From a bacterium (GTDB taxonomy: Bacteria > ARS69): 19,369 nt of DNA. Below, piece after piece: positions 148 through 16,630 of the stretch (position 1 is its first letter; every line of letters starts with the position of its first letter). The position numbers and the translations under genes are program-made. The notes below the pieces were generated by a model. That model did no database searches. It was not told the origin of the DNA and saw only the letters and a program-made list of their open reading frames with translations. The stretch is taken from contig JALGZO010000776.1 of the NCBI GenBank assembly GCA_025774865.1, forward strand, positions 1 to 19,369. The letters run 5' to 3'.

Positions 148-2328
148 CTACTCCCGGATCCGGATCCTGGCGTCCACGATGCGGCACGCGTCCGCCTCCG
201 GAGCCATTAGGAACGGGTTGAGGTCGATCTCGGCGAATCGGTCGAGGTCGGTGATCATCGCGGAGAGTCGCAGCAGGGCATCGTGAATCACGGGTAGCGC
301 GACCGGCGCGTCGCCGCGGACGCCTTCGAGCAGGGGGTAGCCGCGAATCGACTCGACCATTTCCCGCGCCTCCACGTCCGTGATCGGATGCACGCGTAAC
401 GCCACGTCCCGGAACACCTCGACGTACTTGCCACCCATCCCGAAGAGGAGCACAGGCCCGATGACCGGGTCCCGGTTCATGCCGAGAATCACTTCGCGCC
501 CCGGAGTCATCATCTTCTGCACGAGGAAGCCGCTTTCCTCCGGGTCGTGTCCGAGCTTCCGGAGCGAGCGGGTCATGCTCCCGACAGCTCCCTCCATCTC
601 CAGGCGATTCAGGATGTCGAGGATCACCCCACCCACGTCCGACTTGTGTACGACCTTACGCCCCGCGACCTTCAACGCGACGGGATAGCCGAGCGCGTCG
701 GCCGCCCCCACCGCCTCCTCCGCCGTACCGACCCACCTCCACGGTGCCAGCGGGAAGCCGTACGTCTCGAGAAGTCGGAGCGCGTGGACGGCGTCGAGGT
801 ACTCGCCGGGAACCGCCGTCTCGTTCAGCAACCGCTGAGCTTCTTCACGATCCGCGTGGATCACCGGGATCGAACCGCCGTCCCGCTCGATCCACGCGGC
901 GTGATTCGCCATCTCCGTCGCGGCGAGCGCGGCCGTCTCGGGGTAGCGATAGATCGGCGGGCACTCCGGGATTTCGCGCGGGATACGGTCGTAGTACTGC
1001 TCCTCCGCCATCAGCACCATGTAGACGGGCTTGCCGGCGTGGTGCATCGTCTCTGTCACCGCTCGCACGACGCGCATCGGGTCGACCATGATGGGCGGCA
1101 CGAACGCGACGATCGCGATGTCCACCTCATCGGCCTTCAGGAGGATCTCGAGGCAGTCGCGGAAGCTGTCGGTGTCGGCGCTCGCGATCATGTCGATGGG
1201 ATTCGAAACGCTCGCTTCCGCGGGGAGCTTCGACGCGAGCCTCTTCTGCGTCTTGGCGGAGATCTCGGCGAGCTCCATCCCGTGTCCCACGAGCGCATCC
1301 GTCGCCATGATACCGGGCCCGCCCGCGTTCGTGAGAACCGCGACCCGCCGCCCTTTCGGCAGTGGGCAGCGGGAAAAGCCCAGCAGAAGCGCCATCATTT
1401 CGTCGATCGTGCGCGCGCGGATGACGCCGACCTGTCGCAGCAGCGCGTCGGTCGCGGCGTCGAGGCCGGACAGCGCGCCGGTGTGGGACGACGCCGCCCG
1501 CGCCCCCGCCTTCGTGCGCCCGGACTTCACCATGAGAATCGGCTTCGACCGGGAGATCTGCCGCGCGAGCTTCGTGAAGCGCTCTGGCGTTCCGAGGTCC
1601 TCGATGTAGAGCGCGATGATCTTCGTGAGGGAGTCGTTCTCCCAGTACTCGATCAGGTCGTTGCCGGTGATGTCGATCTTGTTGCCGATGGACACGAACT
1701 GCGAGAAGCCCACGTTGCGCTTCTGCATCTCGGTCCAGATGGCGATGCCGAGGGCCCCGCTCTGGGAAACGAAGCCCACCGGCCCGCAGAGCGGAACTCC
1801 TGGCGCGAACGTGGCGTTCAGCGAGACGGCGGGCTCCGCGTTGAAGACGCCGAGGCAGTTCGGGCCGACGGCGCGCATGCCGTATTTCCGACAGGTGGCG
1901 AGCAGCTCGGCCTCCCGGGCGGCGCCCTCGGAGCCGATCTCGCGGAAGCCGGCCGTGATGATGACGAGTCCCTTGACGCCCTTGCGCCCACACTCGTCCA
2001 CGACCCTGCCGACGAGCGCGGCGGGCACGACGATGATGGCGAGATCCACCGGATCGGGGATTTCGAGGATTGATGGGTACGCCTTGATCGAGTGGATGTA
2101 GTCGGCGTTCGGGTTCACGGGGAAGAGCTTCCCGTGGAAGTCGCCGCTGATGAGGTTGTGAACGATCTCGCGGCCGATCGCGCCGGGGCGCTTGGATGCG
2201 CCGATCACGGCGATCGACTTCGGCCGGAAAACGGCGTCGAGGGAGGCCAGGCGCGCGGCGGCGGCGGCCGGGTCGGTCGAGTCGATCGGGCGAGCCGCCG
2301 CAGCGGCCGGAGCGCCGGCGTCAGCCAT
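148..2328 (-). CDS. ADP-forming acyl-CoA (acetyl-CoA) synthetase, fused alpha-beta subunits
   Basis: This 726-residue protein has the fused architecture of NDP-forming acetyl/acyl-CoA synthetases, which convert acyl-CoA, ADP and phosphate to acid, CoA and ATP. The N-terminal Rossmann CoA-binding domain covers about residues 30-160 (motif SIAVIGAS near 38). Succinyl-CoA-ligase-like domains follow, with the motif SSHTGALSG at 280-288, whose His282 is the expected phosphohistidine. A C-terminal ATP-grasp domain runs from about 505 to 726, and its motif HKSDVGG has the second conserved His at 561. The ATG overlaps the lipA stop by 8 bases, so translation is probably coupled and the gene is last in the operon. 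By position it would turn the acyl-CoA product of the upstream dehydrogenase into ATP. The acyl substrate (acetyl, or branched-chain or aryl acyl) cannot be decided from sequence. Confidence 0.95.
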   Translation of the reverse strand: MADAGAPAAAAARPIDSTDPAAAAARLASLDAVFRPKSIAVIGASKRPGAIGREIVHNLISGDFHGKLFPVNPNADYIHSIKAYPSILEIPDPVDLAIIVVPAALVGRVVDECGRKGVKGLVIITAGFREIGSEGAAREAELLATCRKYGMRAVGPNCLGVFNAEPAVSLNATFAPGVPLCGPVGFVSQSGALGIAIWTEMQKRNVGFSQFVSIGNKIDITGNDLIEYWENDSLTKIIALYIEDLGTPERFTKLARQISRSKPILMVKSGRTKAGARAASSHTGALSGLDAATDALLRQVGVIRARTIDEMMALLLGFSRCPLPKGRRVAVLTNAGGPGIMATDALVGHGMELAEISAKTQKRLASKLPAEASVSNPIDMIASADTDSFRDCLEILLKADEVDIAIVAFVPPIMVDPMRVVRAVTETMHHAGKPVYMVLMAEEQYYDRIPREIPECPPIYRYPETAALAATEMANHAAWIERDGGSIPVIHADREEAQRLLNETAVPGEYLDAVHALRLLETYGFPLAPWRWVGTAEEAVGAADALGYPVALKVAGRKVVHKSDVGGVILDILNRLEMEGAVGSMTRSLRKLGHDPEESGFLVQKMMTPGREVILGMNRDPVIGPVLLFGMGGKYVEVFRDVALRVHPITDVEAREMVESIRGYPLLEGVRGDAPVALPVIHDALLRLSAMITDLDRFAEIDLNPFLMAPEADACRIVDARIRIRE

Positions 2329-3403
2329 CGGCGCCGTCCGCGTGGCGGCGTGCGTGGTAGCTCGAGCGCACGAGCGGACCCGATTCGGCGAAGCGGAAGC
2401 CCATCGCGAGCGCTTCCCGCCGAAGGTCTTCGAACTCGTCGGGGCGATAGTACTTCTCGACGCCGAGGTGCTTCTTCGTCGGGCTCAGGTACTGGCCCAT
2501 CGTGATGATGTCGACGTCGACGTCGCGAAGGTCGCGCAGGGTCGTGAGAAGCTCGGGACGAGTCTCGCCGAGGCCGAGCATGAGACCGGACTTCGTGAGC
2601 AACCTGCGTGCGCTCTGCTCACGCCGTGGTTTCTCGACCGCCGCACGCGCAAGCAGTTCCAGTGATTGCCGGTATTCAGCGTCCGGCCGTACCTGGGGAT
2701 AGAGCCTCTCGACCGTCTCCGTATTATGATTCAGAACATCGGGCTCGGCGGCGAGCACGGTGGCGAGGGCGGACGCGTCGCCGCAGAAGTCGGGGATCAG
2801 GACCTCGATCCGGCAGTCGGGGTTGAGCCTCCGGGCCTCCCGGATCGTCTCCGCGAAGTGCGTGGCGCCCCCGTCGGCGAGCTCGTCGCGATTCACGCTC
2901 GTGATCACGGCGTGAGCGAGATCGAGATGCCGGATGGCCTCGGCGACGTTCCGCGGTTCTCCGGGATCGAGCGGCTGTCCCGCCTTCGCGCGGCGGACCG
3001 CGCAGAACGTGCAATGGCGCGTGCACGTGTCACCGAGGATCATGAACGTCGCGGTCCGATCGGACCAACACTCGTAGATGTTCGGGCAGCGGGCTTCCTG
3101 ACACACGGTATTGAGGTTCATTCCGTCGATCAGCTTCCTCACCTGGTGGAACCCCCGACCGGTGTCGAGGCGGATGCGCAGCCACTCGGGACGCCGCGGC
3201 TCGGAGCCGCGATGCGCACGGCTGCGAGGCGTCGTCGCGATCTCGTTCGACCCGAAGATCGGGAAGGGACTCGGCCGATCGCCCGATCGGGCCGGTGCGG
3301 GCGCGAGCACCTCGGCCGGCCGACCCTTTACGACGAACGGCGAGTCGGTCACGCCGGTAGCTGGCGCTCGAGTCTTTCCAACGCCTTCCGGTTTCCATTC
3401 CAT
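2321..3403 (-). CDS. lipA: Lipoyl synthase LipA (radical SAM)
   Basis: LipA inserts two sulfurs into octanoyl groups on E2 or GcvH proteins. From the ATG at 3403 the product has 360 residues. All six cluster ligands are visible with family spacing: Cys101, Cys106 and Cys112 (auxiliary 4Fe-4S, CQEARCPNIYEC) and Cys127, Cys131 and Cys134 (radical SAM CxxxCxxC, CTRHCTFC). The C-terminal RSSY motif that caps the auxiliary cluster is at about 346-349. I chose this start because AAGGAG lies 8 bases upstream; the frame is also open up to 3439. The gene therefore begins 55 bases inside the lipB-Nudix gene. About 70 Pro/Arg-rich residues precede the conserved PEWLRIRL segment, longer than in E. coli LipA. 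It lies between the LipB fusion and the acyl-CoA synthetase. Confidence 0.96.
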   Translation of the reverse strand: MEWKPEGVGKTRAPATGVTDSPFVVKGRPAEVLAPAPARSGDRPSPFPIFGSNEIATTPRSRAHRGSEPRRPEWLRIRLDTGRGFHQVRKLIDGMNLNTVCQEARCPNIYECWSDRTATFMILGDTCTRHCTFCAVRRAKAGQPLDPGEPRNVAEAIRHLDLAHAVITSVNRDELADGGATHFAETIREARRLNPDCRIEVLIPDFCGDASALATVLAAEPDVLNHNTETVERLYPQVRPDAEYRQSLELLARAAVEKPRREQSARRLLTKSGLMLGLGETRPELLTTLRDLRDVDVDIITMGQYLSPTKKHLGVEKYYRPDEFEDLRREALAMGFRFAESGPLVRSSYHARRHADGADG

Positions 3404-4437
3404 CGGAGAAGCTCCTTCGCGTGATCGGGCGCGACCCACTGATACTCGTCATGCTCCTGCGGGGAAAGCCGTACGGAGTCGCTCTCGACCCTCAGAGCGA
3501 ACGCGGTCTCGCGGTTGATCTTCGGGCGGATTCCCCCCTCGTCCGTGAGGAGCTCCGGATCGATGCGGAAATCACGCTCGTACCCGAGTCCCCGCAGCTC
3601 TCCCCGAAGGCCGGTTTCCTCGGCGACCTCGCGGGCGGCCGCCTCCACGGGCGCCTCGCCCGCCTCGACGGCGCCCGTCACGGGCTGCCAGAAGCCACCC
3701 CGGGAAGCCGACCGTTTCAGCACGAGCACCTTCGTCTCGTCCCCTTCCTGACGCCAGATCCAGACCTGGACGGTCCGGCTCGCGATCTCACGCCGGCGGA
3801 GCCGCCGCCCGAAGACCTCTGCGAAGCGGCCCGTGAGATGTGGCCGCACCTCGTCGATCGTGATCGTGCGGCCGAGAATGCGCGACAGGCTCGTGACCCC
3901 GCGATCGGGGATCCCGCAGGGAATGATGACCCGAAAGGAGTCGAGGTCCGTCGCGATGTTGAACGCGAAGCCGTGCGTCGTCACCCAGCGGGAGATCCGG
4001 ACCCCGATCGCCGCGATCTTCAAATCGCCGATCCACACTCCAGTGAGCCCGGAAATCCGTCCCGCGCCGACGCCGAAGTCGCCGAGCGTGCGGATGATGA
4101 CCTCCTCGAGGTCGCGAACGTACCGATGCACGTCACGCCGGTCGGGGTTCAGGTCCATGACCGGGTAGCCTACGAGCTGGCCGGGTCCGTGGAAGGTGAC
4201 GTCGCCGCCGCGCCCCGTGGGGTGGAGCTCGATGCCGCGCGCTCCGAGGTCTTCAGGAGAGGCGACGAGGTTCTGGTGGTCCGCGCGACGCCCGAACGTC
4301 ACGACCGGCGGATGCTCGAGGAGCAGCAGCTGATCGGGCAGCCTGCCGTCCGTCACGGCTCGGCGCAGGTCGTCTTGCAAGTCCAGCCCGTCTTTGTACT
4401 CGACGGTTCCGAGATTCGTCACCTCGAGCTCGCGCAT
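3349..4437 (-). CDS. lipB: LipB octanoyltransferase fused to a C-terminal Nudix hydrolase domain
   Basis: The product has 362 residues. Residues 1 to about 212 are LipB (octanoyl-ACP:protein N-octanoyltransferase): RGGDVTFHGPGQ at 76-87, the catalytic Lys140 in GDLKIAAIG, and the catalytic Cys174 in PCGIPDRGVTSL. Residues about 221-362 form a Nudix domain with a complete Nudix box from Gly255 to Leu277 (G-x5-E-x7-REV-x-EETGL). The flanking FWQPVTGAVE and the C-terminal YQWV...NRKAL pattern resemble NudB, the dihydroneopterin triphosphate pyrophosphatase. No stop or frame change separates the two domains. I chose the ATG at 4437 because GGAGGAGA lies 7 bases upstream. The open frame extends to 4710, but that stretch is the E2 gene read out of frame. 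The fused domain's substrate is unknown. Confidence 0.93.
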   Translation of the reverse strand: MRELEVTNLGTVEYKDGLDLQDDLRRAVTDGRLPDQLLLLEHPPVVTFGRRADHQNLVASPEDLGARGIELHPTGRGGDVTFHGPGQLVGYPVMDLNPDRRDVHRYVRDLEEVIIRTLGDFGVGAGRISGLTGVWIGDLKIAAIGVRISRWVTTHGFAFNIATDLDSFRVIIPCGIPDRGVTSLSRILGRTITIDEVRPHLTGRFAEVFGRRLRRREIASRTVQVWIWRQEGDETKVLVLKRSASRGGFWQPVTGAVEAGEAPVEAAAREVAEETGLRGELRGLGYERDFRIDPELLTDEGGIRPKINRETAFALRVESDSVRLSPQEHDEYQWVAPDHAKELLRWNGNRKALERLERQLPA

Positions 4438-4499
4438 GGAAGCTCTCCTCCCCCGGCGCCGCCGCGGCTTCATCACCTCCAACTGAGCGACCGGGGGAT

Positions 4500-5876
4500 T
4501 CACAGAGCGGCGGCCGTCATCGCGCCGAGGCTCTTTTTGATCTCGCCCATGAACTCCTCGGCGACGGAACCGTCGATGAGTCGATGATCGAAGGAGAGCG
4601 ACAGATACATCATGGGGCGGATCGCGATCGCGTCGTCGATGACGACCGGGCGCTTCTCGATCGCGCCGACTCCGAGGATCGCGGCCTGCGGCTGGTTGAT
4701 GATCGGACAACCCCAGAGACCCCCGAAGATGCCGGGGTTCGTGATCGTGAACGTGCCGCCGGTGACCTCGTCCGGGGAGAGCTTCTTGGATCGCGCGCGC
4801 GCGGCGAGATCGGTGACGGACTTGCCGAGCCCGGCGAGGTTCATGTCGCCGGCGTTCTTCACGACGGGAACGATGAGACCCCAGTCCAGCGCGACCGCGA
4901 TGCCGAGGTTCACGGTGCCGTGATAATGGATGTCGCTACCCGAGATCGAGGCGTTGACGATCGGTATCGCCTTCAGGGCGTCACACGTGGCCTTCGCGAT
5001 GAACGCCGTGTACGACAGCTTCACGCCGTTGCGGGCGAGGAAGTCCGCGCCGTGTCGCTCGCGCATTTCCGCCAGGTTGGAGACGTCGATCTCCCAAAAC
5101 GTCTGGACATGTGCCGACGTTTGACGCGAGTGCACCATGTGCTCTGCGATCTTCATCCGCATGATCGACATCGGCTCGACCCGATCGCTCATCTGCGGGG
5201 TGACGACAGGCGCCGGGGTCGGGGGGGCGGCGGCGGCAGAGGCGGGAGGAGCCGGCGGAGCCGCAACGGGAGCGCCGGTCGGTGCCGGGGCGGAAGCCGC
5301 GACGGCGGCGGGAGCGCCCTCGAGAAACGACTGCATGTCCTGCTTCGTCACGCGGCCATGAATGCCGCTGCCCGACACCTGCGTCAGGTCGACGCCGTGC
5401 TCGGCCGCCATCTTGCGCACGAGCGGGGAGGATTTTGTCTTGATGCGCTCTTCCAAAGTGGCGATCCCGCCGCTGTCCGTCACGAGGCTGGGCGTCGAGT
5501 CGGTCGGTACCGCGGGAACGGGCGCCGCGGGTGCGGGCGCCGGCCGTTCGGGCGCGGGCTCGGCGGGCGCCGGGGTTTCGGTGGCGGCAGCCGGCGTGGC
5601 GGCTGGAGCAGCGCTCGGCGCGGCGGCCGGCGCGGCGCTCTCGCCCACGCCTCCGATCCGCGCCACGACGCTGTTCACCTCGACCGTGTTGCCTTCGTCC
5701 ACGAGGATTTCCGTGAGCGTGCCGGACTCTGGCGCGGGGATCTCGGCGTCGACCTTGTCCGTCGAGATCTCGAAGAGCGGCTCGTCCTTCTCGACCGTGT
5801 CGCCGGGCTTCTTCAGCCACTTGACGATGGTCCCTTCGGCGATGCTCTCGCCCATCTGCGGCATGATCACGTCCAT
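4500..5876 (-). CDS. pdhC: 2-oxo acid dehydrogenase E2, dihydrolipoamide acyltransferase
   Basis: This is the core of the dehydrogenase complex and transfers the acyl group from lipoyl-lysine to CoA. The 458-residue product has one N-terminal lipoyl domain (1-76) with lipoylated Lys41 in ISTDKVDAEIP. A long Ala/Pro linker follows, then a peripheral-subunit-binding domain at about 148-188. A second Ala/Pro linker leads to the catalytic domain (about 230-458), which ends with the active-site motif SFDHRLIDG (His431, Asp435). The ATG at 5876 has AGGAGG 6 bases upstream; the GTG codon just before it is too close to that site. It begins 10 bases after the E1 beta stop. The symbol assumes a pyruvate substrate. 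A branched-chain 2-oxo acid complex is equally compatible with the motifs. Confidence 0.95.
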   Translation of the reverse strand: MDVIMPQMGESIAEGTIVKWLKKPGDTVEKDEPLFEISTDKVDAEIPAPESGTLTEILVDEGNTVEVNSVVARIGGVGESAAPAAAPSAAPAATPAAATETPAPAEPAPERPAPAPAAPVPAVPTDSTPSLVTDSGGIATLEERIKTKSSPLVRKMAAEHGVDLTQVSGSGIHGRVTKQDMQSFLEGAPAAVAASAPAPTGAPVAAPPAPPASAAAAPPTPAPVVTPQMSDRVEPMSIMRMKIAEHMVHSRQTSAHVQTFWEIDVSNLAEMRERHGADFLARNGVKLSYTAFIAKATCDALKAIPIVNASISGSDIHYHGTVNLGIAVALDWGLIVPVVKNAGDMNLAGLGKSVTDLAARARSKKLSPDEVTGGTFTITNPGIFGGLWGCPIINQPQAAILGVGAIEKRPVVIDDAIAIRPMMYLSLSFDHRLIDGSVAEEFMGEIKKSLGAMTAAAL

Positions 5877-5886
5877 CACAATCCTC

Positions 5887-6858
5887 CTAGTAGCTCGCCA
5901 GGCGGCGGGCCGCTCCCAGCAAGTCCTCGGCCCCGGGAAGGAACGCGGCTTCCAGGGGGGGTGCGTAGGGCACCGGCGTGTCCGGTGCCGTGACTCTCAC
6001 GAGCGGACCGTCGAGATGCTCGAAACATTCCTCGGCGAGGATGGCGGCGAGCTCCGCCCCGAGGCCGCCGGTCCGCTGCGCCTCGTGGTAGAGAATGACC
6101 TTGTTGGTCTTCCGGGCCGTCGCGAGGAGTGCGTCCTTGTCGACGGGCAGGAGCGTGCGCAGATCCACGACCTCCATCGAAACGCCTTCGGCGGCGAGCG
6201 TCTCCGCGACTTCCAGCGCCGTGTGCACGCAAGCTCCGTACGTGACGACTGATAGATCCGTCCCCTCGCGCCGAATCCGGGCCTTGCCGATCGGGACGAC
6301 GTAGTCGTCGTCCGGCAGGTCTTCCTTGATCCGCCGGTACAAGAACTTGTGCTCGAAGTACAACACCGGATCCGGGTCGCGGATCGCCGCCTTGATCAAG
6401 CCCTTCGCGTCGTATGCCGTGGCCGGCTCCACGATCTTGAGCCCCGGCGTGACGTAGTGAGACTCCGGATTCTGCGAGTGGAACGGGCCGCCGTGAACGC
6501 CACCGCCGCAGGGCCCGCGGATGACCAGGGGTACCCCTGCGTTCCAGCGGTAGCGGGCCTTCGCCGCCATGTTCACGACCTGGTTGAAGCCGCACGACAG
6601 AAAGTCGATGAACTGCATCTCGGCGACGGGCCTCAGTCCGTTCATCGCCGCGCCGACCGACATGCCGACGATGCCCGACTCCGAGACCGGCGTATCGACG
6701 ACCCGGTCCTTCCCGAACTCGTCCAGGAATCCGGCCGTCACGCGAAACGCCCCCCCGTAGGTTCCCACGTCCTCTCCGATCACGACGACCGCGGGATCGC
6801 GGCGCATCTCTTCGGCCATTCCGTCCCGGATCGCCTCGAGGTAGGTCGTGACGGCCAT
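5887..6858 (-). CDS. pdhB: 2-oxo acid dehydrogenase E1 component, beta subunit
   Basis: This is the beta subunit of a heterotetrameric thiamine-diphosphate E1. The product has 323 residues, usual for the family. Visible family motifs are GEDVGTYGGAF near 28-38, PVSESGIVG with the cofactor-activating Glu60, the EMQFIDF segment, and RGPCGGGVHGGPFHSQ near 114-129. The C-terminal transketolase-like domain contains the HEAQRTGGLGAE segment. The start is the ATG at 6858, which overlaps the E1 alpha stop by one base (TGATG), so translation is probably coupled; the longer open frame upstream lies inside E1 alpha. The gene ends 10 bases before the E2 start. The YRRIKEDLP segment also occurs in branched-chain enzymes, so pyruvate is only the default assumption. 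Confidence 0.95.
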   Translation of the reverse strand: MAVTTYLEAIRDGMAEEMRRDPAVVVIGEDVGTYGGAFRVTAGFLDEFGKDRVVDTPVSESGIVGMSVGAAMNGLRPVAEMQFIDFLSCGFNQVVNMAAKARYRWNAGVPLVIRGPCGGGVHGGPFHSQNPESHYVTPGLKIVEPATAYDAKGLIKAAIRDPDPVLYFEHKFLYRRIKEDLPDDDYVVPIGKARIRREGTDLSVVTYGACVHTALEVAETLAAEGVSMEVVDLRTLLPVDKDALLATARKTNKVILYHEAQRTGGLGAELAAILAEECFEHLDGPLVRVTAPDTPVPYAPPLEAAFLPGAEDLLGAARRLASY

Positions 6859-7949
6859 CAGAGGGCCCCCTCGGGACCCGGCCCCCGCGGACCGCCGTCG
6901 TCCGCGTAAACCCGGCCTGATGCGAATCCGGGATCGGGAGCGGGCGAGCTCACCGCGAAGTCGGCGTCCGCGTCGATCTCGGTCTTGAGCTCGGCGGTCC
7001 GGAAATCCCGTTCGCGCGCCGTCAGGACCCCGTCGGACTCGAGCACCGCGTCGTAGCGCAAGAGCGGATCCTTCTTCTTCCACTCCTCGAAGAGCTCGTC
7101 CGGAACGTACTTCGCGTCGTCGTGCTCGGCGTGACCCTTCATCCGAAACGTCTTCATCTCGAGCAGCACCGGGCCGCCCCCGCCCCGAGCCAAGTCCACG
7201 GCGCGCTTCGTGGCGTCGTACACCGCGAGGACGTCGTTGCCGTCGACGATCTCTCCCGGGATCCCGTACGCGTCCGCCTTCACGACGAGATCCGGCACGC
7301 GGGTCTGCCGATGCGTCGGCGTGGAGTACGCGTACCCGTTGTTCTCCACGATCAGCACGAAGGGGAGATTCAGGACGGCGGCCAGGTTGACGCCCTCGTG
7401 GAAGTCACCGGTGGAGGTGCCGCCGTCGCCGATGTACGTCATCGCGACGATCGACTCGTCCCGACTCTTCGCCGCGAACGCGATCCCTGCCATCACGGGA
7501 ATGACGGCGCCGAGGTGCGAGATGGGCGCGACCATGCGCCTCTCGAGATCGCCGAAGTGCGTGTTCCCGTCGCGGCCGCCCGTGGGGCTCGTGGCCCGGG
7601 CGCAGTACTGAGTGAAGACCTCTCGCGGGCGCACGCCCCGCACGAGCATCGCGCCGAGATTCCGGATCAGCGGGCCGACCCAGTCCTGGGGCTCGAGAGC
7701 GTACGAGGTGCCGACCGAGATCGCCTCCTGCCCGAGCGACGTGTACAAGCCGCCGACGACCTTGCCGGTCCGGTACAAAAGGCCGAGCCGCTCCTCCACC
7801 ATCCGATTCCGTTGGAGGTGCTGCCAGATCTCGAGCTTCTGGCGGGCGCCCAACTTCGCGGACTCCGTGCCGGGAACCCCGCCGACGGCGCGGACGGCTA
7901 CGCGGCCGGACATGAAAGCCCGTTCGATCGGTTGCTCGGAAACGGCCAT
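6858..7949 (-). CDS. pdhA: 2-oxo acid dehydrogenase E1 component, alpha subunit
   Basis: This thiamine-diphosphate-binding subunit decarboxylates the 2-oxo acid and reductively acylates E2. From the ATG at 7949 it has 363 residues. The cofactor motif begins GDGGTSTGDFHEG at 174 and ends with the Asn pair VENN at 201-204. Other family segments are GLYTSLGQEAISVG near 68 and the KTFRMKGHAEHDD phosphorylation-loop region near 266. I prefer 7949 over the open frame to 8045 because the extra N-terminus matches no family sequence and GGGAG lies just upstream. An alternative ATG is at 7913. The roughly 105-base gap to lpd is the largest in the operon and could hold a secondary promoter, but I see no convincing boxes. 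Confidence 0.94.
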   Translation of the reverse strand: MAVSEQPIERAFMSGRVAVRAVGGVPGTESAKLGARQKLEIWQHLQRNRMVEERLGLLYRTGKVVGGLYTSLGQEAISVGTSYALEPQDWVGPLIRNLGAMLVRGVRPREVFTQYCARATSPTGGRDGNTHFGDLERRMVAPISHLGAVIPVMAGIAFAAKSRDESIVAMTYIGDGGTSTGDFHEGVNLAAVLNLPFVLIVENNGYAYSTPTHRQTRVPDLVVKADAYGIPGEIVDGNDVLAVYDATKRAVDLARGGGGPVLLEMKTFRMKGHAEHDDAKYVPDELFEEWKKKDPLLRYDAVLESDGVLTARERDFRTAELKTEIDADADFAVSSPAPDPGFASGRVYADDGGPRGPGPEGAL

Positions 7950-8054
7950 GGAGGCTCCCGGGCGCGGTGTCCCCGCAGCCCGCGTAAGTTCAACAACCCG
8001 CGGCAGTTTACAGAACGCGCGAGCAACGGGGAAGGCTCGAGCCACCCTGGACGG

Positions 8055-9458
8055 CTAGATGTGCACCGCGCTCCCGTGCACGGCGTGAGCCGCTTCCAGC
8101 ACGGCTTCGGAGAGAGTGGGATGTGGGTGCATCAGTCGCGCGACTTCCTCGGTGGTGCTCTCGGTCTGGATCATGAGTCCGGCCTCGGCAATGAGCTCGG
8201 TCGCCTTCGGACCGATGATGTGCACGCCGAGCACCTCGTCGTAGCGCTTCTCGGACACGATCTTCACGAAGCCCTCCGTGCGCTCGAGAATGCGCGCCTT
8301 GCCGGAGGCGGAGAACGGGAACTTGCCGACCGCGACGTCGTAGCCAGCCTCGCGGGCCGCCGCTTCCGTCAGCCCGACCGACGCCACTTCCGGGTCCGAA
8401 TACGTACAGCTGGGCGTCGTCGCGTAGTTGATCGGACGCGTCTGGACACCGGCCATGTGCTCCGCCGCGACGATCGCTTCGGCCGATGCCACGTGAGCGA
8501 GCTGCGGGGAGTCGATCACGTCTCCGATGGCGTAGATGCTGGGAACGTTGGTCTGGCCGAACTCGTTCACGGGAACGAATCCGCGGTCGCTGACGGTCAC
8601 GCCGGCTTCCTTCGCGCCGAGACCCTCCGTATAAGGCGCGCGGCCCACGGCGACCAGCAACATCGCGGCCGTCAAGGTGGTCTCGCCGCCGCTCTTGCCC
8701 TGAACCGTGCATTCCACGCCGCCGTCGGTCGCGACGATGCGTCCGGCCCGCGTCCCCGTCATGCACTCGATGCCACGCTTCTTGAACGTCCGCTCGAACT
8801 CCTTCGAGACTTCCTCGTCCTCGATCGGCAGCATCCTCGGCAGGAGCTCCACCACCGTGACCCTCGATCCCATTCGCACGAACACGGACGCGAACTCCAC
8901 ACCGACCGCCCCGGCGCCGAGCACGATCAGGCTCTCCGGCACGGCGTCGAGCTCGAGGATTTCGTCGGAGGTGACGATGCGCTTGCCGTCGAGCTCGATT
9001 CCCGGGAGGAGCCGCGGGACCGATCCGGTCGCGATCATGATGTTCTTCGCGGCAATCGACACGGAGCCGGCTTCGCTCTCCACCGCGACGCGCCCGTCTC
9101 CCTCGATGCGACCGAGGCCCTTCACGACCTCGATCTTGTTCTTCTTCATGAGGTAGTTCACTCCGGCCGTCGACTTGTCGACGATCTTGCCCTTTCGGGC
9201 CATTACCGCTGGAAAGTCCACCTCCACGCCGCTCGCCCGAATGCCGTGGGTCTCGGCGTGACGCATCTCGTCGAGGAGGTCGGCAGAGTGCAAGAGGGCC
9301 TTCGTCGGGATGCATCCGCGCAGGAGACACGTTCCGCCGAGCCTGGAGTCCTTCTCCACGATGCCGACGCGGAGCCCGAGCTGCGCGGCGCGGATGGCGC
9401 CGACGTAACCGCCCGGTCCACTTCCGATCACGACGAGATCCTTCTCGAGGTCACTCAC
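8055..9458 (-). CDS. lpdA: Dihydrolipoamide dehydrogenase (E3)
   Basis: This FAD flavoprotein reoxidises dihydrolipoamide on E2 and passes electrons to NAD+. The 467-residue product has the FAD-binding GSGPGGYVGA motif near residue 13 and the redox-active disulfide in GGTCLLRGCIPTKA (Cys44, Cys49). A central NAD-binding GAGAVGVEFAS motif follows, then an ATPSCTYSDPEVASVG segment, and the C-terminal HPHPTLSEAV motif carries the catalytic His. The start codon is GTG, preceded by GGGAGAG, and overlaps the stop of the AhpD-like gene by 8 bases (GTGAGTGA). That overlap supports read-through of the upstream TGA, because the selenoprotein frame ends exactly there. The gene serves the E1/E2 genes downstream and may also reduce the AhpD-like protein through lipoyl groups. 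Confidence 0.97.
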   Translation of the reverse strand: MSDLEKDLVVIGSGPGGYVGAIRAAQLGLRVGIVEKDSRLGGTCLLRGCIPTKALLHSADLLDEMRHAETHGIRASGVEVDFPAVMARKGKIVDKSTAGVNYLMKKNKIEVVKGLGRIEGDGRVAVESEAGSVSIAAKNIMIATGSVPRLLPGIELDGKRIVTSDEILELDAVPESLIVLGAGAVGVEFASVFVRMGSRVTVVELLPRMLPIEDEEVSKEFERTFKKRGIECMTGTRAGRIVATDGGVECTVQGKSGGETTLTAAMLLVAVGRAPYTEGLGAKEAGVTVSDRGFVPVNEFGQTNVPSIYAIGDVIDSPQLAHVASAEAIVAAEHMAGVQTRPINYATTPSCTYSDPEVASVGLTEAAAREAGYDVAVGKFPFSASGKARILERTEGFVKIVSEKRYDEVLGVHIIGPKATELIAEAGLMIQTESTTEEVARLMHPHPTLSEAVLEAAHAVHGSAVHI

Positions 9459-10014
9459 CGTTCTCTCCCGGTTCGGGGCCGCCTTCCCCCGGCTGCGTTG
9501 GCGTCAAGCCGAACGCGACCGAGAAACGGTTCAAGTAGCAGAACATCCCGGCGACGCACATCAGCTCCACGACCTGCTCCGGTCGCCAGTGTTCCGTCAA
9601 AGCGTCGATGTCCTCCCGGCCGATCTCGTCGTGGGCGACCGCCACCTTTTCCGCGAAACGGACGGCCGCCTTCTCGGATTCGTCCAACGGTCCCCGGCCG
9701 ACATCCCCGAGGGTGTCGAGCATCTCGTCCGTGGCTCCGTACCGTCTTGCCAAGACGGTGTGAGACGCGAGTCAGTATCGGCTCCCGTTCAGCTGCGAGA
9801 CTCTCACGGCCACGAGCTCCTTGAGCCGGACGTCGAGCGTACCCTCGCCGAGCGCGGCGTCGAAGTGCGCGTTGAACGTCCGGAAGAGCTCGGGGCGGAG
9901 CGCCAACACGCGAAACAGGTTCGGCACGTTCCCGCGGGCCTCCCAGAACTTCTCGAAGACGTCCTGAATGGACTCGTCGACTTCGCCCCAACGGGCACGT
10001 GGAAGGAAGGACAA
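9451..10014 (-). CDS. AhpD-like peroxidase-related protein, probable selenoprotein (in-frame TGA = Sec81)
   Basis: This is a carboxymuconolactone decarboxylase/AhpD-fold protein of the peroxidase-related type. If the TGA at 9774-9772 is read through, it has 187 residues. The catalytic array of mycobacterial AhpD (E118, C130, C133, H137) aligns with identical spacing to Glu66, Ser78, TGA-codon 81 and His85 (NGSRY-U-LASH). The TGA therefore replaces the second, peroxidatic Cys. The frame continues with family-like residues (ARRYGATDEML through CYLNRFSVAFGL) and ends overlapping the lpd start by 8 bases. The start is TTG with AGGAG about 6 bases upstream; no ATG fits. A conventional gene caller would split it at 9772 into an 80-residue piece and a fragment starting near 9753. 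It may accept electrons from dihydrolipoyl E2/E3. A nonsense mutation or sequencing error is the alternative. Confidence 0.85.
9741..9759 (-). promoter_or_regulatory. Candidate bacterial SECIS hairpin
   Basis: On the coding strand the sequence ACCGTCTT-GGC-AAGACGGT forms a perfect 8-bp stem with a three-base loop. The stem begins 12 bases after the TGA and the loop 20 bases after it. Known bacterial SECIS elements lie directly downstream of UGA, with the apical loop about 16-37 bases away and a G among the first loop bases, and this hairpin fits all of these. The stem is built partly from codons unusual here: GCA occurs nowhere else in this gene and AGA only once more. That suggests selection on the RNA rather than the protein. 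It would bind SelB to recode UGA. Confidence 0.75.
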
Positions 10015-10043
10015 AGAGCTCTCCTGGTCGCGGCCGGTCCGGG

Positions 10044-12302: not shown

Positions 12303-12362
12303 GCGGGAAGCCTTCCCCCTCGCCGACCCCTCCGCGATTCGACTCGAGTTCAGGCTTCCCGC
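12303..12362. repeat. 11-bp perfect inverted repeat upstream of the PHP gene
   Basis: GCGGGAAGCCT at 12303-12313 is repeated inverted at 12352-12362, separated by 38 bases. It lies 31 bases upstream of the PHP-type gene start. It could be an operator pair or a long-loop stem in the leader; no known regulator site is recognised. Confidence 0.5.
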
Positions 12363-12381
12363 GATTTGTTGGGGGGGGAGG

Positions 12382-12413
12382 GCCGGGCGTTCGGCGGGTG
12401 GGAACCGCCCGGC
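12382..12413 (-). terminator. Strong GC hairpin after the outer-membrane protein gene
   Basis: GCCGGGCG and CGCCCGGC form a perfect 8-bp stem with a 16-base loop, beginning 19 bases downstream of the outer-membrane protein stop. It is followed by CCTCCCCCCCC rather than a U tract, so it is not a classical intrinsic terminator. It may still end or protect the transcript. Confidence 0.4.
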
Positions 12414-12432
12414 TTGTCTCTCGCTCCTCCCC

Positions 12433-13140
12433 CTATTGAAAGTCGAAGCGCACTCCGAGGCGGGCGAAGTCGCCTCCCGCGTTCACGCGCCCGGTCAGCG
12501 GAGTGCCATCGATCAACAGTCCTTTCGTCGGCTCGGACTCGTGCACGCCGGCTTCGAACAGAAGCCCGAACGTGGAGTCGAGCCTCGCTTCGAGGCCGAG
12601 GGCGACGGTCGTGCCCCAGCCGTGGAAGTACTCGCTTTGCCGATCGACGCGTTGCACGTTCCCATCGGTCCGGACCTCGTGGTACGCCAGCCTCAGGAAA
12701 TCGTAGGTCACCTGGCCCGAAATGAACGGGACGAGGCGGTCGTTCGCGACCGGGAACCGCAGCCGGAGGATCCCCCCGAGGGGGACGAGGTCGGTGGAGG
12801 TGCCCTCCAGATCGATGACGCCCTCGACCGGCAACTCGTAAGGCGTCTCGATGATGAGAACGTCGGTCCGACCGTCTCGGCGCCGCAGCCAGTCCGCCGT
12901 CAGGCCGAACTCGAGGTGCCGGGACGGGGCCGAGCCCAATTCCAGCCCGACGAACAGCCCTTCGAGAGAGTCGCGACCCCTCGCCGCTCGGTCGAGGTCG
13001 TAGCCACCGACCTTGAGCGCCGTGTACCCTCTGGCCGAACGAGGGTGACCGCCGTTCTCGGCGTGCGCCGCGGCGGTGGCGGCGGCGAGGATCGGCACGA
13101 CGAGCACCGTCAGGGTTCGCGTCGCGGAGGTCATGGTCAT
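12433..13140 (-). CDS. Probable outer-membrane beta-barrel protein
   Basis: The 235-residue product starts with a clear Sec signal peptide, with likely cleavage after AHA at residue 27. The mature part alternates short amphipathic strands and turns (LEFGLTADWL, RLVPFISGQVTYDF, TVALGLEARLDS, TFGLLFEAGV). It ends in an aromatic strand (ARLGVRFDFQ) as in outer-membrane barrels. I recognise no specific family beyond this. The ATG at 13140 has GAGAGG about 5 bases upstream; the open frame continues to 13488 but the extra residues are not protein-like. A near-consensus sigma-54 site lies 54 bases upstream, so expression probably depends on RpoN and an enhancer-binding activator. It is divergent from the BrkB gene. 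Confidence 0.8.
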   Translation of the reverse strand: MTMTSATRTLTVLVVPILAAATAAAHAENGGHPRSARGYTALKVGGYDLDRAARGRDSLEGLFVGLELGSAPSRHLEFGLTADWLRRRDGRTDVLIIETPYELPVEGVIDLEGTSTDLVPLGGILRLRFPVANDRLVPFISGQVTYDFLRLAYHEVRTDGNVQRVDRQSEYFHGWGTTVALGLEARLDSTFGLLFEAGVHESEPTKGLLIDGTPLTGRVNAGGDFARLGVRFDFQ

Positions 13141-13193
13141 CGCATCCTCTCTCGAGTAGCCGCCGGGAATCGGCGTCGGCTGCCCAGGGGGAG

Positions 13194-13209
13194 TGCAATG
13201 CTCGGGCCA
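13194..13209 (-). promoter_or_regulatory. Sigma-54 (RpoN) promoter of the outer-membrane protein gene
   Basis: On the minus strand TGGCCCGAGCATTGCA matches the -24/-12 consensus TGGCAC-N5-TTGCW with one mismatch, and the GG and GC doublets have the required 10-base spacing. Transcription would start near 13183, giving a leader of about 43 bases before the ATG at 13140. An 8-base palindrome AAGCGCTT lies just upstream at 13228-13235. Confidence 0.65.
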
Positions 13210-13412
13210 TTCCGCGCGCGAGGTGCTAAGCGCTTGATGGAGAATCAGTTGGAAAGAGCACCAGGGTGGCTGGACTCGCCTCGTGACGTGTCGCAAGGAC
13301 GCGCGAGCGTGTCTTTCCTCTCTCCGCGGCCCCGGGGCAGGCGATGTTCCGCGGGCCGCTCGGATCTTCCCTTTCGCTATCGTGGCTCCACTGCCGCGAG
13401 AACGACGACGGC

Positions 13413-14312
13413 ATGACGACCTCCGAGGTCCCGAATCTCGATCCGGGCGGTCGCTCCCAGCGCGGGCCGCGGAGGTGGCTGGCCGCACCGTGGGAGATCT
13501 TCACCGCGTTCCAGGAGCACGGATGCTACTTCCTGGCTGCGGGTATCAGCTTCTACTTCATGCTGTCACTGATCCCGATGCTGTTTCTCCTGCTTGCCGT
13601 CATCGGGTACTTCCTGCGGGGCACCGTGCCGGTTCGCGACGATCTGATGGCGGCCGTGCACCAGTACATTCCGTTCCTCACCGAAGAGATCATCCAGAAC
13701 ATCGAGCAAGTCGTTCAGAATCCCGGACTCCTCGGGTGGATCGGTGGTGCCGGGCTGTTCCTTTCGACGGACCTGGTGTTCGTGGCGATTCAATCCTCTC
13801 TCGACAGGATCTTCGTGCAGAGTCGAAGAAGCTTTCTCAAGTCGAAGATGCTCTCGGTGCTGCTCGGGGTGATGGTCTTCTGCGTGATCCTGCTGACGAT
13901 CGCCGTCAACGCGGTGGACACGAGCCTGGAGAGATTGATGGCGGAGACGGCGGAGTTCGGTGGATTCCCGGTCGGCTTGCACCTCTCGACGTGGACGATC
14001 GGAATCCTGCTGCTGGGGTCGTTCACCCTCGCGATTCGAATGCTGCCCCACACGCACGTGCCGTTCCGCTACGCGATCTGGGGTGGCGCGATGGGTGCGG
14101 CCCTCTGGCTGTTGGTCAAGTCCGGCTACGTTTGGTACCTGGAGAACGTGTCGAAGGTAGGGCCGCTGTTCGGCTCGCTGTCCGCCGTGATCCTGACCCT
14201 CATCTGGGTCTACGTTTCCTCGCTCGTGTTCCCCGCGGGGGCCGAGTTCACGCGGTGGCTGATCGTGACTGACCCGACGCGGGACATGAGCGGAACACGG
14301 CCGGTGTCCTGA
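13413..14312 (+). CDS. YihY/virulence factor BrkB family inner-membrane protein
   Basis: The 299-residue protein has about six hydrophobic segments (near residues 39-68, 104-126, 146-166, 190-210, 220-240 and 252-275), as in the YihY/BrkB family. The family's C-terminal pattern is visible as GPLFGSLSAVILTLIWVY followed by FPAGAEF. The function of the family is not settled: it was once called RNase BN, and a transport or envelope role is usually suggested. The ATG at 13413 is preferred because residues from there look like the usual polar N-terminus leading to the PWEIFTAFQEH helix. An ATG at 13344 would add 23 residues, and neither has a strong ribosome site. It ends 7 bases from the convergent TPR gene and is divergent from the barrel protein. 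Confidence 0.9.
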   Translation: MTTSEVPNLDPGGRSQRGPRRWLAAPWEIFTAFQEHGCYFLAAGISFYFMLSLIPMLFLLLAVIGYFLRGTVPVRDDLMAAVHQYIPFLTEEIIQNIEQVVQNPGLLGWIGGAGLFLSTDLVFVAIQSSLDRIFVQSRRSFLKSKMLSVLLGVMVFCVILLTIAVNAVDTSLERLMAETAEFGGFPVGLHLSTWTIGILLLGSFTLAIRMLPHTHVPFRYAIWGGAMGAALWLLVKSGYVWYLENVSKVGPLFGSLSAVILTLIWVYVSSLVFPAGAEFTRWLIVTDPTRDMSGTRPVS

Positions 14313-14319
14313 CGACGAT

Positions 14320-16080
14320 CTACTTGATGCCCCGGACGAACCCGCCGCCCTCGACCTGTTCCCGGGCGAGGTGGTAGGGGAACTCGCGACCGGCCGATGG
14401 GTTCATCGCCGACATGAAATGAGTGTGCGCGCGGTCCGGCTCGCCGAGGGTGCTCGCCGCGAAGCCCAGGACGAACTGCATGTCGTTCTCGAAGGAGCCC
14501 CCGAGCGAGGTCGTCTTCGCTCGGTATTCCCTCTCGGAGAGATCGCCGGCCAGGAAACTGGCCGATCGCATCGCGGCCTCGCCCGTCGGACCTACGCGAC
14601 TCGCGACATCCTCCGCCACGCGCCGCCACGTCCGCTTGGCGAGGTCCTCCATCCCGAGCGAGGACAGCGCGATTCCCTCCCACAGGCGTGCGAACGCGTA
14701 CTCGTTGGCACTCTTCGTGCCGACTCGATCGAACACGGTGATGGCCGAGCGGGGGTTGGCCTCCGCGAGGTGGGTTCGGGCGATCCAGTTTCGCACGGCG
14801 CCGACTCCGTATCCCGACTCGCGGAACGAGGCGTCGAGCGGGAGGCTCTGGAATTGTCCCCGCGCGTTCTGGAACTCGCTCGACTCGAACGCGATGATGC
14901 CCTCCCACAGGGCGAAGTTCCGCCGGGCCGCTGCGCCCTTGAGGTCTCGACGCCCCATCTCGAGCGCTTTTCGCGCCCGCGGGATGTTCTCGCCGGCGAG
15001 GGCGGAGCGGATCACTTCGATCCGACTCTCGAGCTCCTTCCGGTTTTCGGCCGCGCTCTTCTCCTCCGCCAGCTGGCCCGTGTCGACCCCCGGCTCGCGC
15101 ATCGCCTTCTGCGCCTTCTCGAAGAGAGCCCGCTCTTCGTCGGAGCCGGCCCGCTGCTCGAACGCAGCCGCGAACGCGCGCACCGCACTGCGATGGCGGC
15201 CGAGCGATGTCTGGTAACGTCCAAGAGTCGCCCACGCATCCCCGTGGTCGGGCAGGAGTGCCACGGCCTTCTCCAGGTAGCCGACGCCGTCCTCCCCGGG
15301 GTTCGCGAGGCCGGCCAGGTACAGGTAGTGGGGGTCCTGCGGGTGCTTCCGAGCGAGGGCGGCATAGGTTCGGGCGGCTTCCGCCGTCTGTCCCACCGAC
15401 TGCATCCAGTCGAGCCGCGCGGCCTGGAGCGCCGGGTCGTCCGGAGACGAGTCGAGGTAGAGGGTCGCCTCGGTGATCGCCGACTCCGTGCGGCCGGCGG
15501 CGGCGAGCGCGCGGGCGAGGTTCGGGCGAGCCGAGAGATCGTCGGGATTCGCTTCCACGTACGCCGTCAACGACGGGACGGCCTCCGCCGCCTGACCGCT
15601 CTCGACGAGCGCCCGTCCCGCCACCATGTGAGCGGTCGGTTCGTCGGGGGCGAGCTCGAGCGCTCGTCGCGCGGAAGCGAGAGCCGCTTCCGGCCGATTC
15701 ACGCTGAGCTGCCCGTACGCCAGGTCCACGGCGAATTGCACCGAGGTGGTGTCGAGCCGGGCCGCTTCTTCGAGATGATGGATCGCCAGCTCCGTTTTGT
15801 CCGCCTCGAATGCGGCGCGTCCGAGTCCGTGGTGAGCGGCGGCGTCGTCGGGGTTGTCGTGGATCAGTTGCTGGAACACGACGATGGCCTCGATGGCGGC
15901 ATCGTTGGCCACGAGGACCCACCCGCGTTCGAGCGGCGTCGGCTCCGGAGTCGGGGCCTCACGAGGTGGATGGTCGACGATCGGCGTGGACTGAAAGCTC
16001 CATCCGCCCGGCGCGCCCGAAAGCCAGTACAGGGCGGCGGCGACCGGAAGGACGATCGCGACGGCGGAAATCGGAGCCGC
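14320..16080 (-). CDS. TM-anchored TPR protein, 3' part of a frameshifted GYF-TM-TPR gene
   Basis: In this frame a transmembrane segment (SAVAIVLPVAAALYWL, encoded near 16068-16018) is followed by a Pro-rich spacer and about 530 residues of TPR-like helical repeats (for example AAAHHGLGRAAFEADKTELA, AIHHLEEAARLD, ALASARRALELAPDEPTAHM, AVALLPDHGDAWATLGRYQ). The first ordinary start codon is GTG at 15912, but that start would drop the membrane anchor, and no start codon sits upstream of the TM segment before an in-frame TAG near 16161. The natural N-terminus is therefore the GYF segment in the neighbouring frame. TPR proteins scaffold protein complexes; here the repeats would lie outside the cytoplasm if the GYF domain is inside. 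No specific partner is recognised. Confidence 0.85.
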   Translation of the reverse strand, partial: AAPISAVAIVLPVAAALYWLSGAPGGWSFQSTPIVDHPPREAPTPEPTPLERGWVLVANDAAIEAIVVFQQLIHDNPDDAAAHHGLGRAAFEADKTELAIHHLEEAARLDTTSVQFAVDLAYGQLSVNRPEAALASARRALELAPDEPTAHMVAGRALVESGQAAEAVPSLTAYVEANPDDLSARPNLARALAAAGRTESAITEATLYLDSSPDDPALQAARLDWMQSVGQTAEAARTYAALARKHPQDPHYLYLAGLANPGEDGVGYLEKAVALLPDHGDAWATLGRYQTSLGRHRSAVRAFAAAFEQRAGSDEERALFEKAQKAMREPGVDTGQLAEEKSAAENRKELESRIEVIRSALAGENIPRARKALEMGRRDLKGAAARRNFALWEGIIAFESSEFQNARGQFQSLPLDASFRESGYGVGAVRNWIARTHLAEANPRSAITVFDRVGTKSANEYAFARLWEGIALSSLGMEDLAKRTWRRVAEDVASRVGPTGEAAMRSASFLAGDLSEREYRAKTTSLGGSFENDMQFVLGFAASTLGEPDRAHTHFMSAMNPSAGREFPYHLAREQVEGGGFVRGIK

Positions 16081-16630
16081 CCTCGTGTGGCTCGGGCTGG
16101 AGCTGCGAGGGCTCCGAACCGCTCCAGGATTCCTCCGCCGCCAGGTAAGGACTGCCGGCTACCTCCGGGCGATCCATCGGGGGTGGGGCCGCGTCCGGCG
16201 CGGCCCCGGGGGAAAGATCGTACGGCAATGCCGACAACGGAAGAGGCCGCGGGTCAGGCTCCGGAGGGGTCGCCGGCTCCACACCCTGCGTCATCTCGGC
16301 GATCAGCGGGTCGAGGCTCGGAGGTATCTCCACGGATGTCGGCGGCGCGGCCGGGGGCGAGGCGAGGCCCTCCCCGTCGAGAGGAAAGCTGCCTTCGGAA
16401 GAGTCCGAGGTGCCGCCGCCGATCGTGGCCGCTTCGGTCTCCGCCGGGGCGTGCTCGTCTCGGGTGAGGGCGACATCGGAGATGCTGATCCACTGATCGT
16501 CCCCGACCTCGCAAATGCGAGCGTCCTCCAGGATCACGCCCGCGGCCATCCCCTCCAGAATGTGGATCATCGTCATCGGCCCGAGGACCTGCCGATCCGG
16601 GCTCTCGACGTAGTAGAGCTTGTTCTCCAT
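15959..16630 (-). CDS. GYF_2-domain N-terminal part of a frameshifted GYF-TM-TPR gene
   Basis: Residues 1 to about 55 form a GYF_2-type domain (LYYVESPDRQVLGPM, GVILEDARICEVGDDQWISI). A Pro/Ala/Glu-rich linker follows to about residue 183. After codon 183 (ending at 16082) this frame becomes Arg-rich and runs to a stop at 15959, while the +1 frame encodes a clean transmembrane segment leading into TPRs. Skipping the single G at 16081, within a GGG run, joins the two into a protein of about 769 residues. The ATG at 16630 has GAGG about 5 bases upstream. The break is most simply an indel, either real or in the assembly. GYF_2 domains often sit at the N-terminus of bacterial membrane proteins. 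Confidence 0.8.
   Translation of the reverse strand: MENKLYYVESPDRQVLGPMTMIHILEGMAAGVILEDARICEVGDDQWISISDVALTRDEHAPAETEAATIGGGTSDSSEGSFPLDGEGLASPPAAPPTSVEIPPSLDPLIAEMTQGVEPATPPEPDPRPLPLSALPYDLSPGAAPDAAPPPMDRPEVAGSPYLAAEESWSGSEPSQLQPEPHEGGSDFRRRDRPSGRRRPVLAFGRAGRMELSVHADRRPSTS

What the first reader, a model, noticed from the sequence alone, without database searches (positions are those of the whole stretch)
9772..9774. In-frame TGA at the peroxidatic Cys of an AhpD-like protein: probable selenocysteine
The TGA replaces the second Cys of the AhpD CxxC motif exactly. Glu66, position 78, codon 81 and His85 keep the E118/C130/C133/H137 spacing of mycobacterial AhpD. The frame continues with family-like sequence for 106 codons and ends in the 8-base overlap with lpd. 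AhpD-like selenoproteins have been reported in environmental bacteria, so recoding is plausible. Standard annotation would show two broken ORFs and miss it.
Basis: partly seen in the sequence, partly recalled or inferred. Interest (0 to 1): 0.9.

Follow-up and report, generated by a model that had tools for sequence, protein, structure and literature searches.

The report
Selenocysteine AhpD-like peroxidase in dehydrogenase operon
A bacterial gene that looks broken by a stop codon in fact very probably reads that UGA as selenocysteine, the rare 21st amino acid, at the active site of an AhpD-like redox enzyme; such proteins are already known, but this one heads a pyruvate-dehydrogenase-type operon and has lost the partner cysteine that its relatives keep.

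Summary
On the minus strand, a 187-codon CMD/AhpD-like gene (10014-9451) has an in-frame TGA (9772-9774) at the second Cys of the CxxC-xxx-H active site. The genome encodes selA, selB, tRNA-Sec and a selD that itself carries an in-frame TGA. Relatives aligned over this motif have TGA or a Cys codon at exactly this position. All ten TGA genes compared (window plus nine from several phyla) carry the same hairpin 20 nt after the UGA: a 7-8 bp stem with a GGC or GTC loop. It meets all four published bacterial SECIS criteria, and five of its seven core pairs show compensatory changes. None of 19 Cys homologues has it. AhpD-like selenoproteins (CxxU) have been known since 2005, so this is a new member of a known kind. 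Two details are less usual: the first Cys is Ser here (SxxU, unlike the near relatives), and the gene leads a lpd-E1alpha-E1beta-E2 (plus lipB-lipA) cluster, conserved in a second genus. This suggests, but does not prove, reduction by dihydrolipoyl groups, as for mycobacterial AhpD.

The parts
9451..10014 (-). AhpD-like/CMD selenoprotein gene, 187 codons read through UGA (TTG start inferred)
9772..9774 (-). Sec-encoding TGA, codon 81, at the second Cys of the CxxC motif
   Evidence: homologues have TGA or Cys at the same column
9741..9759 (-). bSECIS upper stem-loop ACCGTCTT-GGC-AAGACGGT, loop 20 nt after the UGA
   Evidence: model in PMC13188914
9781..9783 (-). AGC (Ser78) in place of the first Cys of CxxC; near relatives have Cys
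10021..10025 (-). Shine-Dalgarno-like AGGAG, 6 nt before the TTG start
   Evidence: direct reading
8055..9458 (-). lpd, dihydrolipoyl dehydrogenase, overlapping the end of the ahpD-like gene by 8 bases
   Evidence: TIGR01350, 570 bits against cut-off 409
6858..8045 (-). 2-oxoacid dehydrogenase E1 alpha (start uncertain)
   Evidence: TIGR03181, 270 bits, below its equivalog cut-off
5887..6858 (-). 2-oxoacid dehydrogenase E1 beta (start uncertain)
   Evidence: NF006667, 337 bits against cut-off 321
4500..5879 (-). E2 dihydrolipoyl acyltransferase with N-terminal lipoyl domain
   Evidence: TIGR02927, 441 bits against cut-off 423
3349..4710 (-). lipB-type octanoyltransferase frame with C-terminal NUDIX-like region (start uncertain)
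   Evidence: TIGR00214, 165 bits against cut-off 84; NUDIX-type match at residues 324-450
2321..3439 (-). lipA, lipoyl synthase
   Evidence: TIGR00510, 365 bits against cut-off 310

Best explanation
The gene encodes an AhpD-like (CMD superfamily, TIGR01926-like) selenoprotein. The bSECIS hairpin 20 nt after the UGA recruits SelB with Sec-tRNA(Sec), so the in-frame UGA is read as selenocysteine instead of stop (strongly supported by sequence evidence, not shown biochemically). Sec81, helped by the conserved Glu66 and His85, is the attacking residue of a peroxidase or other thiol/selenol redox reaction (inferred from the family). In this species the usual partner Cys is Ser78, so an oxidised Sec would be resolved by an external thiol or another Cys, not by a local selenenylsulfide (inferred). 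Because the gene is the first of a lpd-E1alpha-E1beta-E2 cluster, the most likely reductant is dihydrolipoyl-E2 recharged by Lpd and NADH, as reported for mycobacterial AhpD (inferred from gene order; about even odds). The stated confidence is for the selenoprotein reading.
For: Complete Sec machinery: selA 543 bits, selB 340 bits, tRNA-Sec 72.7 bits with anticodon TCA, selD 369.5 bits with its own in-frame TGA in HTAGUASK. tRNA-Sec is in all five genomes of the phylum held and selA in three, which argues against contamination of the bin. TGA is kept at the same codon in nine homologues from the sister genus, Acidobacteriota, Gemmatimonadota and Rokubacteria, while 19 others compared have Cys there. 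An identical-position hairpin is found in all ten TGA genes: 100% of pairs formed, 5 of 7 pairs with two-sided changes, 0 of 500 shuffles as high on the covariation score. The window's stem uses AGA, seen once among the Arg codons of five neighbouring genes; a stem this long arises in 0.3% of synonymous recodings. Purifying selection on both sides of the TGA. High-confidence AhpD-core fold (pLDDT 93.8) matching 2prr, 6k40 and others. The ahpD-lpd-E1a-E1b-E2 order is conserved in G002. [quoted passage not shown]).
Against: No protein evidence. Ser78 removes the resolving residue, and this rests on one MAG. The lpd linkage is seen in only two genomes; in the 51% homologues (L053, L054) and the Gemmatimonadota one (L055) the gene has other neighbours. 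Total folding energy of the hairpin region is not unusual against synonymous recodings; the signal is in the position, stem and covariation. The protein falls just below the TIGR01926 cut-off (76.7 against 81.8).
Confidence: 0.95

Rival explanations
1. The gene is a selenoprotein, but its chemistry is not peroxide reduction fed by lipoyl groups: it is another CMD/AhpD-type activity (for example reductive dehalogenation as in Bmp8), or a reduction fed by thioredoxin or a small thiol. This competes only with the functional half of the best explanation.
For: The fold also matches debrominase Bmp8 (6ohi, 6ohj). Homologues sit in other contexts, e.g. near a thioredoxin-reductase-like gene in L055. 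Ser78 breaks the standard two-residue mechanism.
Against: Best structural matches are the peroxidase-related AhpD cores (2prr, 6k40, 2oyo); the gene cluster here is the lipoyl one.
Confidence: 0.4
2. The TGA is a genuine stop: a pseudogene or a truncated 80-residue protein with the rest decaying or separately translated.
For: TGA is a usual stop in this genome; a TTG lies downstream in frame (9753).
Against: The TGA is conserved across several phyla at exactly the catalytic Cys; dN/dS about 0.3 downstream of it; covarying bSECIS; complete Sec machinery.
Confidence: 0.02
3. A sequencing or assembly error turned TGC or TGT into TGA.
For: MAG in 785 contigs with 8.3% contamination; reads not available.
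Against: Same TGA in independently assembled genomes from different studies, with a hairpin that Cys homologues lack.
Confidence: 0.01
4. Genome-wide reassignment of TGA (to Trp or Gly) explains the in-frame codon.
For: None found.
Against: Seven of ten genes checked here end in TGA, including this one; tRNA-Sec is present; homologues have Cys, not Trp or Gly, at this position.
Confidence: 0.005

Closest known systems
AhpD-like selenoproteins of the Sargasso Sea and GOS surveys (COG2128 and PF02627 types) and the TIGR01926 CxxU entry in the 2026 prokaryotic selenoproteome review (PMC1088965, PMC2398784, PMC13188914)
   Same: Sec at the second Cys of the CxxC motif, CMD/AhpD core, bSECIS with G in a small apical loop.
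   Different: First Cys is Ser here (SxxU); the gene leads a lipoyl dehydrogenase-complex cluster; it scores just below the TIGR01926 cut-off.
Mycobacterium tuberculosis AhpD (TIGR00777)
   Different: Cys, not Sec; TIGR00777 did not match the window protein; gene order in Mycobacterium was not tested.
NF041238, NF053654 and NF041047 (seleno)protein families of NCBIfam
   Same: AhpD-related families described as (seleno)proteins.
   Different: Window protein scores far below each cut-off (40 vs 175, 57 vs 310, 21 vs 110 bits).
Debrominase Bmp8 (6ohi, 6ohj)
   Same: CMD/AhpD fold with a Cys-based active site.
   Different: About 20% identity; different reaction; no Sec.

Membership tests
Bacterial selenoprotein gene | In-frame UGA at a position where homologues have Cys | tested here: met
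Bacterial selenoprotein gene | selA, selB, selC and selD in the genome | tested here: met
   kin
Bacterial selenoprotein gene | bSECIS: 3-9 nt loop, 4-16 bp stem, G in first two loop positions, 16-37 nt from UGA, MFE at or below -7.5 kcal/mol | tested here: met
   loop GGC, 8 bp, 20 nt, -15.6 kcal/mol; criteria from PMC13188914; covariation
Bacterial selenoprotein gene | Selenium in the purified protein | not testable with these tools
   needs 75Se labelling or mass spectrometry
CMD superfamily (PF02627) / AhpD core domain (TIGR00778) | Score above the curated cut-off | tested here: met
   63.8 vs 23 bits; 46.9 vs 27.8 bits
TIGR01926 peroxidase-related subfamily | Score above the curated cut-off | tested here: not met
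   76.7 vs 81.8 bits, full-length match: closest subfamily, not a formal member
AhpD sensu stricto (TIGR00777) | Match to the family model | tested here: not met
   not among the matches of the window protein
AhpD-type two-residue mechanism | Both redox residues of CxxC present | tested here: not met
   Ser78-x-x-Sec81 here; Cys in all near relatives
Lipoyl-dependent AhpD peroxidase system | Reduction by Lpd and lipoylated E2 | not testable with these tools
   gene order only

The most novel reading that the evidence does not exclude
A selenoprotein peroxidase translationally coupled to the pyruvate/2-oxoacid dehydrogenase operon, which has dropped its resolving Cys and uses a single Sec recharged directly by dihydrolipoyl-E2: a built-in, one-Sec peroxide guard of the dehydrogenase complex.
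Probability: 0.25. Interest if true: 0.55.

Novelty: new member of a known kind. Interest (0 to 1): 0.38.

Why it matters
It is a clear case in which plain gene calling, stopping at UGA, breaks a conserved active-site gene, in a sparsely sampled phylum whose held members all carry tRNA-Sec. Its place in a lipoyl-enzyme cluster gives a direct, testable link between selenium use and the lipoamide-driven peroxide defence known from mycobacteria, and the SxxU motif gives a natural single-Sec variant of AhpD chemistry.

Tried and rejected
Whole-hairpin folding energy against synonymous recodings was not significant; stem length and covariation were used instead. Rfam had no match in the window at gathering scores. 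A viral-contig scan found no relatives. A first alignment was made on the wrong strand for minus-strand loci and was redone. Pseudogene, sequencing error and TGA reassignment were considered and rejected. Conserved lpd linkage beyond the window's own family was looked for in L053-L055 and not found. The name of the organism could not be settled: the phylum has only five held genomes and the nearest named record is 'bacterium isolate M3-44_Bin_119'.

Full report
What is there. The finding lies on the minus strand. A TTG start at 10014, six bases after AGGAG, opens a frame of 187 codons that is interrupted once, by TGA at 9774-9772 (codon 81), and ends in TGA at 9453-9451, overlapping the lpd start by 8 bases. 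The read-through protein matches Pfam CMD (63.8 bits, cut-off 23) and the AhpD core domain TIGR00778 (46.9, cut-off 27.8), and comes close to the peroxidase-related subfamily TIGR01926 (76.7, cut-off 81.8).

The codon across relatives. The nearest relative is a gene in another genus of the same family (G002, the same gene as L052, 'bacterium isolate M3-44_Bin_119'), 65% identical and with TGA at the same codon. A scan of one genome per species gave 80 loci. Of those aligned, TGA occurs at exactly this column in homologues from Acidobacteriota (including Ca. Polarisedimenticola svalbardensis), Gemmatimonadota and Rokubacteria, and the rest have TGC or TGT there. More distant CMD proteins in other genomes show the same pattern. 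Sec and Cys forms cluster on the tree with about three changes (shuffled mean 8.9). Both halves of the gene are under purifying selection: dN/dS is about 0.36 before and 0.32 after the TGA against L052.

Decoding machinery. The genome (a draft of 4.7 Mb in 785 contigs, 92.65% complete, 8.3% contamination) has full-length selA, selB, tRNA-Sec (anticodon TCA) and selD; its selD carries its own in-frame TGA in HTAGUASK. All five genomes of this small phylum that are held have tRNA-Sec and three have selA; the two without selA are the less complete ones. Contamination is therefore an unlikely source of the machinery.

The SECIS. Directly after the UGA the window reads CTCGCGTCTCAC-ACCGTCTT-GGC-AAGACGGT: a perfect 8-bp stem with a GGC loop that starts 20 nt after the UGA. 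The published bacterial model asks for a 3-9 nt loop, a 4-16 bp stem, G in the first two loop positions, 16-37 nt spacing and MFE at or below -7.5 kcal/mol (PMC13188914); all are met (MFE -15.6). All ten TGA genes of the scan have the stem in the same register with loop GGC or GTC, although the encoded residues differ (HTVLARR or HTASAKR). Among nine distinct sequences all 63 cells pair, five of seven pairs change on both sides, and no shuffle of 500 reaches the covariation score; slid controls pair in 35-54% of cells. Nineteen Cys homologues lack the stem. In the window the stem needs AGA, a codon seen once among the Arg codons of five neighbouring genes, and TTG and GCA, both uncommon here. 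Total folding energy alone does not stand out against synonymous recodings, so the argument rests on register, stem and covariation. More distant TGA-bearing CMD genes have hairpins of other shapes, and two (L038, L043) show no clear one in this simple test.

What it probably does. AlphaFold2 gives a confident all-helical AhpD-core model (pLDDT 93.8) whose best matches are peroxidase-related AhpD structures (2prr, 6k40, 2oyo, 3c1l), with debrominase Bmp8 and Sestrin2 further away. Downstream in the same direction lie lpd, E1 alpha, E1 beta, E2 with a lipoyl domain, lipB and lipA. [quoted passage not shown]). The order ahpD-lpd-E1a-E1b-E2 is kept in G002, but not in the more distant homologues L053, L054 and L055. 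The inference is a Sec peroxidase or redox protein recharged by the dehydrogenase complex's own lipoyl groups. The Sec step is near certain; the lipoyl step is about even; the one-Sec (SxxU) mechanism rests on one draft genome and is open.

Comparison with what is known. AhpD-like selenoproteins with CxxU were found in the Sargasso Sea data (27 sequences) and the GOS survey (299 and 70 sequences), and a TIGR01926 CxxU family is listed in the 2026 review. This gene is therefore a new member of a known kind. No paper in the library tying AhpD-like selenoproteins to lipoamide or a pyruvate dehydrogenase operon was found, but only open-licence papers were searched.

Noticed in passing
G000:C477:1420-2355 (L048, L134): selD of the same genome is itself a selenoprotein gene, with TGA in HTAGUASK.
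   Followed up: partly
L038 (G003) and L043 (G004): Other members of the window's small phylum carry different AhpD-like genes with TGA at the same catalytic position (GCRYU, GCVHU); the AhpD/CMD superfamily seems to be a repeated site of Sec use in this group.
   Followed up: partly
L022 (G052), match 1501-1992: A distant CMD homologue also has Ser before the Sec (NKSSHU), so SxxU may have arisen more than once.
   Followed up: no
L141, L143, L145: Further Sec-type AhpD paralogues (CHYU) in genomes that also hold a relative of the window gene.
   Followed up: no
window 3349-4710 (-): The LipB-type octanoyltransferase frame appears fused to a C-terminal NUDIX-like domain.
   Followed up: no
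window 9538-9540 (-), Cys159 in MFCYLNR: The window protein has an extra Cys in the last core helix where near relatives have Asn or Ser; it could stand in for the lost resolving Cys.
   Followed up: no
window 12350-13488 and 15959-16630 (-): An outer-membrane-like protein and a protein starting MENKLYYVESPD (GYF-like) have counterparts near the ahpD-lpd cluster in G002 (L132), so wider synteny seems kept between the two genera.
   Followed up: partly
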